In this document: positions 18,268-53,208 of the stretch, piece after piece | Layout: each line of letters opens with the position of its first letter | How positions within the stretch are numbered: the first letter of the stretch is position 1 | NCBI GenBank assembly: GCA_012270555.1 | Contig: JAAXIC010000049.1 | Span: 3,136-67,135 of the forward strand | Direction of reading: 5' to 3' | Source of the DNA: Chloroflexota bacterium | GTDB taxonomy: Bacteria > Chloroflexota > UBA11872 > VXOZ01 | DNA: 64,000 bases | Translations under genes and position numbers: made by a program | The notes under the pieces: generated by a model | What the model was told of the DNA's origin: nothing | The model's database searches: none | The model's input: only the letters and a program-made list of their open reading frames with translations

Positions 18268-18364
18268 GGAGGCGCTCGGGTCCCGGTGGGCCTCGCGGTC
18301 TTCAAAACCGTCTGCGGGGCGGGCTACTCCCGTCCTGGGTGGGTTCGACTCCCATGCGCCTCCG
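18268..18364 (+). tRNA. selC: tRNA-Sec (anticodon TCA)
   Basis: The sequence folds as selenocysteine tRNA. An 8-bp acceptor stem (GGAGGCGC with GCGCCTCC) is followed by discriminator G. The anticodon loop CTTCAAA (anticodon TCA, 18302-18304) closes a CGGT/ACCG stem. The variable arm is very long, and the T-loop GGGTTCGACTCCC is standard. The total of 97 nt before CCA and the long extra arm match bacterial tRNA-Sec. CCA is not encoded. The TCA anticodon reads UGA. selA lies at 62820-64000 in this window. selB and selD are not seen here. Confidence 0.95.
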
Positions 18365-52485: not shown

Positions 52486-52818
52486 CTACTCTGATTCGGC
52501 GCAGCACGGACAACCCTCGCGCAGCCCGTCGAAGGTGTAGATGCCGGTATTGTGGCCGTCTTCCCATTGCAAGCGAATCGCGTAGCTTCCCACCTGCTCA
52601 ATGGATTCCAGGAACGTCTGCGCCGCCGTGAGGATCACACCGGCATGCATCGAGCCGGGTGTATCTAACTCACCCGCGCAGAGCGCACAGGGACAGGAAC
52701 GACGCAGATCGTCCCAGTCGTAGCGGCTAACGTGTCCATCGCGCCACGTAATCACAAGCGCACGGTCTTCCTCAACGCGTGTAATCACTGCTGGCGTTCG
52801 CGCCCGCATGTCCCTCAT
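52486..52818 (-). CDS. DUF971 (gamma-butyrobetaine hydroxylase-like N-terminal domain) protein
   Basis: This 110-residue protein has RDGHVSRYDWDDLRRSCPCALCAGELDTPG, then GSYAIRLQWEDGHNTGIYTFDGLREGCPC. This matches DUF971, the small domain found alone in many bacteria and near Fe-S related genes. The role is unknown. The gene follows a structured region on the same strand (52843-53208). Confidence 0.88.
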   Translation of the reverse strand: MRDMRARTPAVITRVEEDRALVITWRDGHVSRYDWDDLRRSCPCALCAGELDTPGSMHAGVILTAAQTFLESIEQVGSYAIRLQWEDGHNTGIYTFDGLREGCPCCAESE

Positions 52819-52842
52819 GTCGAACTCTCAATACGCAATCAA

Positions 52843-52873
52843 GAACGCACCCCGGCATGGCCGAGGTGCGTTC
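52843..52873 (-). terminator. Strong hairpin ending the leader upstream of DUF971
   Basis: On the minus strand GAACGCACCTCGGC pairs with GCCGGGGTGCGTTC (14 bp, one T-G pair) around a 3-nt CAT loop, followed by a weak TTGATT tract. It lies 25 nt before the DUF971 start. It may be a terminator or attenuator. Confidence 0.5.
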
Positions 52874-53056
52874 GCTTCCATTTCTGGGTCGGGCCGTAGT
52901 TCCGCCTTTTCATCGCCCTAACCCTGGGCACTGGTTTCAGTTCGGCTACCCGACATACACGCGCAGCCAATACTACCCGTCGAGAGGCGAAACCCGACGC
53001 CCTGTCTCGTGCCCTCCACCCGCATCTATCCTACGTGCTGTCCCGCGGATGGAGGG

Positions 53057-53125
53057 TTAACTGTCCACTTGCCAAACACAATACAGCACTCTCGGATTAT
53101 CGAGCGGCAAGCGCAAACCTCTCAT
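53057..53125 (-). CDS. Putative 22-residue leader peptide
   Basis: An ATG at 53125 lies 5 nt downstream of a strong double Shine-Dalgarno (AAAGGAGGGAGGT). The frame encodes MRGLRLPLDNPRVLYCVWQVDS before TAA. Its placement at the 5' end of a structured region suggests a leader peptide. No homolog recognised. Confidence 0.4.
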   Translation of the reverse strand: MRGLRLPLDNPRVLYCVWQVDS

Positions 53126-53179
53126 GGCTCACCTCCCTCCTTTCGTGCCGTTTCGAGGGCTCACGCCCTCTCTAATACT

Positions 53180-53208
53180 AATTAACCAGATAGCGTTGCG
53201 TTTGTCAA
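53180..53208 (-). promoter_or_regulatory. Candidate promoter for the DUF971 leader
   Basis: On the minus strand TTGACA (53208-53203) and TTAATT (53185-53180) are separated by 17 nt. The -35 box is a perfect match and the -10 box is weaker. Confidence 0.5.

What the first reader, a model, noticed from the sequence alone, without database searches (positions are those of the whole stretch)
52843..53208. Structured leader with a 22-codon ORF, preceding DUF971
Seen: a near-perfect promoter, a double Shine-Dalgarno and ATG encoding a 22-residue peptide, followed by several long stems and a 14-bp terminal hairpin just before DUF971. It does not match common RNA families that I know. Inference: an attenuator or a new ncRNA.
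Basis: partly seen in the sequence, partly recalled or inferred. Interest (0 to 1): 0.5.

Follow-up and report, generated by a model that had tools for sequence, protein, structure and literature searches.

The report
Phylum-wide micropeptide-coding structured RNA gene
This stretch is a free-standing RNA gene, found in many Chloroflexota bacteria and unnamed in the libraries searched, that encodes a tiny peptide ending in a near-constant tail and places a hairpin at a fixed distance behind it, as if built to act on the ribosome reading it.

Summary
On the minus strand, 53208 to about 52837, lie a promoter, a strong Shine-Dalgarno, a 22-codon ORF (MRGLRLPLDNPRVLYCVWQVDS), stems and a 14-bp terminal hairpin. 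It is a real structured and coding unit: the ORF evolves like a protein and the 3' helices covary within the genus. It is not a DUF971 attenuator. A model built only from other families finds this RNA as its sole hit in the window. Relatives occur in at least 25 of the 90 Chloroflexota families sampled, next to unrelated genes, usually with their own terminator. All are short ORFs ending Q-V/I-D (mostly GVWQVDx-stop), with a hairpin whose base lies 5-7 nt after the Asp codon in 46 of 52 loci. In the seven loci where the stop codon is displaced, the hairpin stays at 7 nt in six. The constant thing is therefore the distance from the peptide tail to the hairpin. I propose a free-standing, translation-coupled RNA in which tail and hairpin pause the ribosome and so gate the 3' domain. 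Identity and coding are well supported; pausing and any target are inferred. There is no Rfam or Pfam match, and 'WQVD' text searches gave no described family.

The parts
53180..53208 (-). promoter: -35 TTGACA (53208-53203), 17-nt spacer, extended -10 TGG-TTAATT (to 53180); start predicted near 53173
   Evidence: invariant TTGACA and TGnTTnnnT in six species; consensus recalled, no transcript data
53155..53170 (-). 5' hairpin GAGGGC-GTGA-GCCCTC
   Evidence: 6 of 6 species pair, one pair C-G to U-A
53132..53140 (-). double Shine-Dalgarno GGAGGGAGG
   Evidence: sequence; conserved in six species
53057..53125 (-). micro-ORF MRGLRLPLDNPRVLYCVWQVDS-stop
   Evidence: coding-type substitutions, stop kept as TAA/TAG/TGA; homologous C-termini in other families
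53012..53056 (-). H1: 12-bp hairpin starting directly after the stop (53056-53045 with 53023-53012)
   Evidence: each pair kept in 5 or 6 of 6 species; position conserved in 52 loci
52891..53005 (-). 3' domain: GGGC 53002-52999 / GCCC 52894-52891; GTTTCGCC 52993-52986 / GGCGGAAC 52906-52899; hairpin GCCC 52929-52926 / GGGC 52918-52915; two weaker inner helices
   Evidence: covariation on six species
52837..52873 (-). terminal hairpin (52873-52860 / 52856-52843) and tail TTGATT, probable intrinsic terminator
   Evidence: 4 pairs with changes on both sides; most relatives end in a hairpin with a T-run
52486..52818 (-). DUF971 / GBBH-like_N gene, neighbour only, not part of the unit
   Evidence: PF06155 E 4.5e-23; adjacency limited to the genus

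Best explanation
It is a free-standing RNA gene of about 335 nt, a member of a phylum-wide Chloroflexota family: promoter, 5' hairpin, Shine-Dalgarno, micro-ORF, hairpin H1, structured 3' domain, terminator. Supported here by sequence: it is a discrete conserved unit, the ORF is under selection as a peptide, its C-terminal tail (G-V/R-W-Q-V/I-D) is shared across families, and H1 sits a fixed 5-7 nt after the Asp codon whether or not a stop codon lies there. Inferred: the ribosome making the WQVD tail meets H1 at its mRNA entrance, pauses or is slowed by the nascent tail, and keeps H1 open. Whether the ORF is being translated then sets the fold or availability of the 3' domain, which acts in trans or on the RNA's own stability. 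My odds are about 0.9 for identity and coding, about 0.4 for the ribosome-pause part.
For: Six of six genus species carry it, single copy. Peptide core 8 of 9 substitutions at third positions, three different stop codons. 3' domain covariation 7 pairs, 0 of 500 shuffles. Weak hits of model R2 in two other families turned out to have in-frame ORFs MRYRVLLGVWQVDR and MRLIKPIVLHCRWQVDT. A pattern scan of 400 Chloroflexota genomes hit 48 genomes against 11 for the reversed pattern; I accepted 35 genomes in 18 families. Model R3, built from 16 other-family RNAs, finds the window RNA (32.5 bits, E 1.6e-8 in 172 kb). R3 on 80 genomes added 12 of 61 Chloroflexota without an accepted hit (one degenerate) and none I accept in 18 outgroup genomes. 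H1 begins 0-1 nt after the stop in 39 of 39 loci; 12% of shuffles have such a stem of score 10 or more. H1 lies 5-7 nt after the Asp codon in 46 of 52; with displaced stops 7 nt in 6 of 7. Promoter score at least 10 in 14 of 36 against 0.4% of shuffles. Most relatives end in a hairpin with a T-run.
Against: No transcript, ribosome profiling or peptide data exist here. The exact pattern demanded W-Q-V-D and a stop one codon later, so the loci it brought in are selected for that; only the CM-found loci test it freely. Four of 52 loci read on into or past H1 (G007, G009, G046, G197), so termination itself cannot be the universal step. The long-range helix of the 3' domain is weak across families by single-sequence shuffling: 5 of 22 at p 0.05 or less. 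The 5' half alone shows little covariation: 1 pair, 82 of 500 shuffles as high. 22 of 36 loci lack a promoter of score 10 by my strict rule. Many Chloroflexota families gave no hit.
Confidence: 0.55

Rival explanations
1. Classical dual-function small RNA: the 3' domain base-pairs with target mRNAs and the peptide has its own separate role; no ribosome pausing is involved.
For: Free-standing unit with promoter and terminator, peptide plus structured RNA; up to three divergent copies per genome (G246).
Against: A separate peptide role does not explain why H1 keeps its distance from the Asp codon when the stop moves. No target tested.
Confidence: 0.25
2. Plain small mRNA: the micropeptide is the only product and the 3' structures merely stabilise the message.
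For: Strong SD and coding-type conservation.
Against: Covarying interior helices of the 3' domain, H1 at fixed distance, and N-terminal halves that vary freely in length and sequence.
Confidence: 0.12
3. Cis-acting attenuator or leader of DUF971.
For: Same strand, about 25 nt upstream in three species; TrkA-RNA-DUF971-nth order in six of six genus genomes.
Against: Gap of about 150-160 unconserved nt in three of six; other families carry the RNA beside unrelated genes; one relative (G099) ends in a terminator before a convergent gene.
Confidence: 0.06
4. Chance fold and chance ORF.
For: None that survives.
Confidence: 0.01

Closest known systems
Dual-function small RNAs (SgrS/SgrT, VcdRP/VcdP; PMC4021124 and PMC8672173 seen as abstract starts in a search listing)
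   Same: Free-standing small RNA that also encodes a short peptide.
   Different: Here the conserved part of the peptide is its C-terminus next to a hairpin at fixed distance, across a phylum; no pairing target is known.
Nascent-peptide arrest leaders (TnaC, SecM, RAPP-type; recalled, PMC12992588 abstract start only)
   Same: Conserved C-terminal residues near the stop, structure just downstream.
   Different: No regulated gene follows in cis; the motif G-V-W-Q-V-D differs.
Downstream-peptide / Yfr6 RNA of cyanobacteria (RF01704; passages of PMC2864571)
   Same: About 250-nt RNA with a short conserved ORF.
   Different: There the conserved structure is 5' of the ORF; here it is 3' of it, at fixed distance.
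Frameshift-stimulating hairpins (recalled)
   Same: 5-8 nt between codon and hairpin.
   Different: No slippery heptamer at TGG-CAR-GTN-GAY.

Membership tests
Any Rfam 15 family | score at or above the gathering score | tested here: not met
   no hit in the window RNA; 5 hits in 20 relative loci, all tRNAs
tmRNA | tRNA-like ends and tag ORF; matches RF00023 | tested here: not met
   genuine tmRNA lies elsewhere in the genome (G000:C48, 182.3 bits); this ORF has its own SD and ATG
RNase P RNA | matches RF00010 | tested here: not met
   found elsewhere in the genome (G000:C13, 183 bits)
Cis leader / attenuator | constantly upstream of the same regulated gene | tested here: not met
   neighbours differ between families
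Dual-function small RNA | independent transcript with promoter and terminator | tested here: inconclusive
   sequence features present; no RNA data
Dual-function small RNA | encodes a peptide under selection | tested here: met
   (selection only; translation itself not measured)
Dual-function small RNA | RNA acts by base pairing with targets | not tested
Arrest-peptide leader | nascent peptide stalls the ribosome | not testable with these tools
   needs toeprinting or profiling

The most novel reading that the evidence does not exclude
A new class of free-standing ribosome-sensing RNA: a phylum-wide gene whose only ORF carries a C-terminal pause motif (G-V/R-W-Q-V/I-D) placed 5-7 nt before a hairpin, so that the occupancy of a single ribosome switches the fold of a trans-acting RNA domain; a translation-state sensor that is not a leader of any gene.
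Probability: 0.35. Interest if true: 0.88.

Novelty: new variant of a known kind. Interest (0 to 1): 0.72.

Why it matters
A family of RNA genes spread over at least 25 of 90 sampled Chloroflexota families, up to three copies per genome, has no entry in the RNA and protein libraries searched. Its micropeptides, mostly of about 12-22 residues, are short enough to be missed by gene finders. The fixed tail-to-hairpin spacing gives a direct testable prediction about ribosome pausing outside a cis-regulatory leader.

Tried and rejected
DUF971 attenuator: rejected on synteny. tmRNA and RNase P: rejected. Pairing of the SD with CCTCC after the stop: possible in the genus by eye, but it competes with the more stable H1, was not tested further, and is not a family feature. 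ORF-internal helices CUUGCC/GGCAAG and GCAC/GUGC: nearly invariant, so uninformative. A peptide-pattern scan of the GTDB-220 genome collection found the peptide only in the genus: 4 of 37 loci are the genus, and I read the other 33 as chance since none continues VWQVD. R1 weak hits outside the genus, of the alignments shown, match mainly the terminal hairpin, except one low-scoring longer alignment that I did not accept. R3 weak hits rejected because no SD-led ORF with this tail is seen: L275, L277-L288, L290-L292; four further rows came without a locus and were not read. Long-range helix across families: only suggestive. The first RNAalifold alignment of all families failed, energy 0. 'WQVD' in E. 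coli SmpB's tail (passage of PMC8778911) is taken as coincidence, not tested. Text searches for a published family: (held library only); of PMC5521070 only passages were seen, and the word Chloroflex does not occur there.

Rows dropped: G004, G005 and G020 as near-duplicates before the 39- and 52-locus counts. 13 of 48 pattern-hit genomes were not accepted, because there was no in-frame start with SD or no H1. Of the non-accepted loci, 12 were run as H1 controls: two had a stem of score 13 or more, neither within 1 nt of the stop.

Full report
What is there. On the minus strand from 53208 to about 52837 the window holds, in order: a TTGACA box, an extended -10 (TG before TTAATT, itself only 3 of 6 to consensus), a GNRA-capped hairpin at the expected 5' end, a double Shine-Dalgarno, a 22-codon ORF, a 12-bp hairpin (H1) that starts directly after the stop codon, a structured domain, and a 14-bp terminal hairpin with a weak T tail. 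The fold is 4.8 sd better than shuffles. Rfam has nothing for it. The scan tool did not list the promoter; its case rests on conservation.

It is conserved as a unit. DNA search of 101 genomes found it in 6, all of the window's genus (own genome included), single copy, at 71-98% identity in the five others. Four of these contigs carry Chloroflexota names by matching lengths (VXOZ01000031.1, JAPPLM010000028.1, CATQHC010000009.1, JAJEAH010000011.1). The flanks on both sides do not align between the deeper species, while the RNA does. The order TrkA-RNA-DUF971-nth holds in six of six. The gap to DUF971 is about 25 nt in three species and about 150-160 unconserved nt in the other three.

The ORF is coding. 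Codons 6-21 read LPLDNPRVLYxVWQVD in all six. Of nine substitutions in them eight are at third positions (p about 0.001), the length never changes, and the stop is TAA, TAG or TGA. Some codons are invariant even at silent positions, among them a rare AGA arginine (7 of 135 arginine codons in six nearby genes), so RNA-level constraint probably overlaps.

The RNA is structured. On a hand-given structure of the 3' domain 96% of cells pair and seven pairs changed on both sides; 0 of 500 shuffles did as well, though with six related sequences this control is lenient. The 5' half is too conserved to test: one such pair, 82 of 500 shuffles as high.

Relatives outside the genus. The full peptide is found only in the genus. 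A covariance model of the 5' half (R2) gave weak hits in other families. Two proved to be homologues when read: L127 with TTGACA-17-TAGTAT, SD, MRYRVLLGVWQVDR-stop, hairpin; and L129 with TTGACG-17-TATAGT, SD, MRLIKPIVLHCRWQVDT-stop, hairpin, terminator, convergent gene. A pattern for SD plus WQVDx-stop was then run on 400 Chloroflexota genomes: 48 genomes hit, 11 hit the reversed control, and 35 genomes in 18 families were accepted after reading. Model R3, built from 16 of these RNAs and no genus member, finds the window RNA as its only window hit at 32.5 bits. R3 was run on 80 genomes: 62 Chloroflexota (one positive control, 61 without an accepted hit) and 18 from elsewhere. It added 11 genomes with clear ORFs and one degenerate case (G197), and none I accept among the 18. 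The total is 25 families plus one doubtful, of the 90 in the sample. Variants seen are WQID, LQVD, LQID, FQVD, so Q-V/I-D is the core. No Rfam family matched the RNA in 20 relative loci; the five matches were all tRNAs.

Shared anatomy. Most loci end in a GC-rich hairpin with a T-run, mostly 150-230 nt after the start of the WQVD codons. 14 of 36 have a promoter of score 10 or more against 0.4% of shuffles; some others miss only my strict last-T rule by eye. Single-locus folds average z = -3.3, with 28 of 39 below -2. Neighbouring genes are unrelated between families: aconitase, SRP54, P-type ATPase, integrase, DUF885, rubrerythrin and others. Similar neighbours occur only between close relatives. 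So the unit stands alone.

The mechanistic clue. H1 starts 0-1 nt after the stop in 39 of 39 loci (35 of the pattern-found loci and four genus members); 12% of shuffles have such a stem of score 10 or more. Since the ORF nearly always ends one codon after Asp, this could have meant a stop-to-hairpin rule. Seven CM-found loci separate the two. In three the stop follows Asp directly; in four the frame runs on 6 to 18 codons, into or past H1. In six of these seven H1 is still 7 nt after the Asp codon, and in the seventh 4 (extra outer pairs). Overall it is 5-7 nt in 46 of 52. That spacing is where a structure meets the mRNA entrance of a ribosome decoding the Asp codon (recalled from frameshift-element work). 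With a conserved nascent tail and freely varying N-termini this resembles arrest peptides, hence the proposed pause. No step of this has been measured.

What remains open. No target, ligand or phenotype is known. The 3' domain differs much between families; its helices are convincing within the genus, but a closing helix across families is only suggestive (5 of 22 at p 0.05 or less). A motif ACCYCRGG with a partner CCYG in roughly 15 loci is by eye. Prevalence in families without a hit is uncertain because large searches score few candidates per genome.

Literature. 'WQVD' anywhere in 5.39 million open papers gave 14 papers; by their titles none describes such a peptide, and I opened one, which held an SmpB-tail passage. 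Searches on Chloroflexi with leader peptides, RNA motifs and arrest peptides listed none that describes this. Subscription papers and preprints are not covered.

Noticed in passing
window 18268-18363 (+): Selenocysteine tRNA gene (RF01852, 67.1 bits), suggesting the organism may make selenoproteins.
   Followed up: no
L006 about 840-1460: In species G003 some 620 nt of partly repeat-like DNA (recurring GGAATGAC) separates TrkA from the RNA's promoter, yet the RNA is intact.
   Followed up: no
L236-L242 (G246, G169, G183): Family f56 carries two or three divergent copies per genome, with at least two peptide types (KPH..FCRWQVDG and RDCRWQVDx); H1 stems are shorter in the first type.
   Followed up: partly
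L202: An IMG/VR contig with a full member of the family; its downstream DNA reads DNSNLWLAETLWRL, as beside the copies in G284 and G296, so it may be a cellular contig rather than a virus (by eye).
   Followed up: no
E. coli SmpB C-terminal tail: The tail contains EWQVDK (passage of PMC8778911), the same four residues as the micropeptide tail; probably coincidence, but SmpB also acts inside the ribosome.
   Followed up: no
L271, L274, L266, L268: Copies whose ORF lacks the stop after the tail and runs into or past H1; useful natural tests of whether termination matters.
   Followed up: partly
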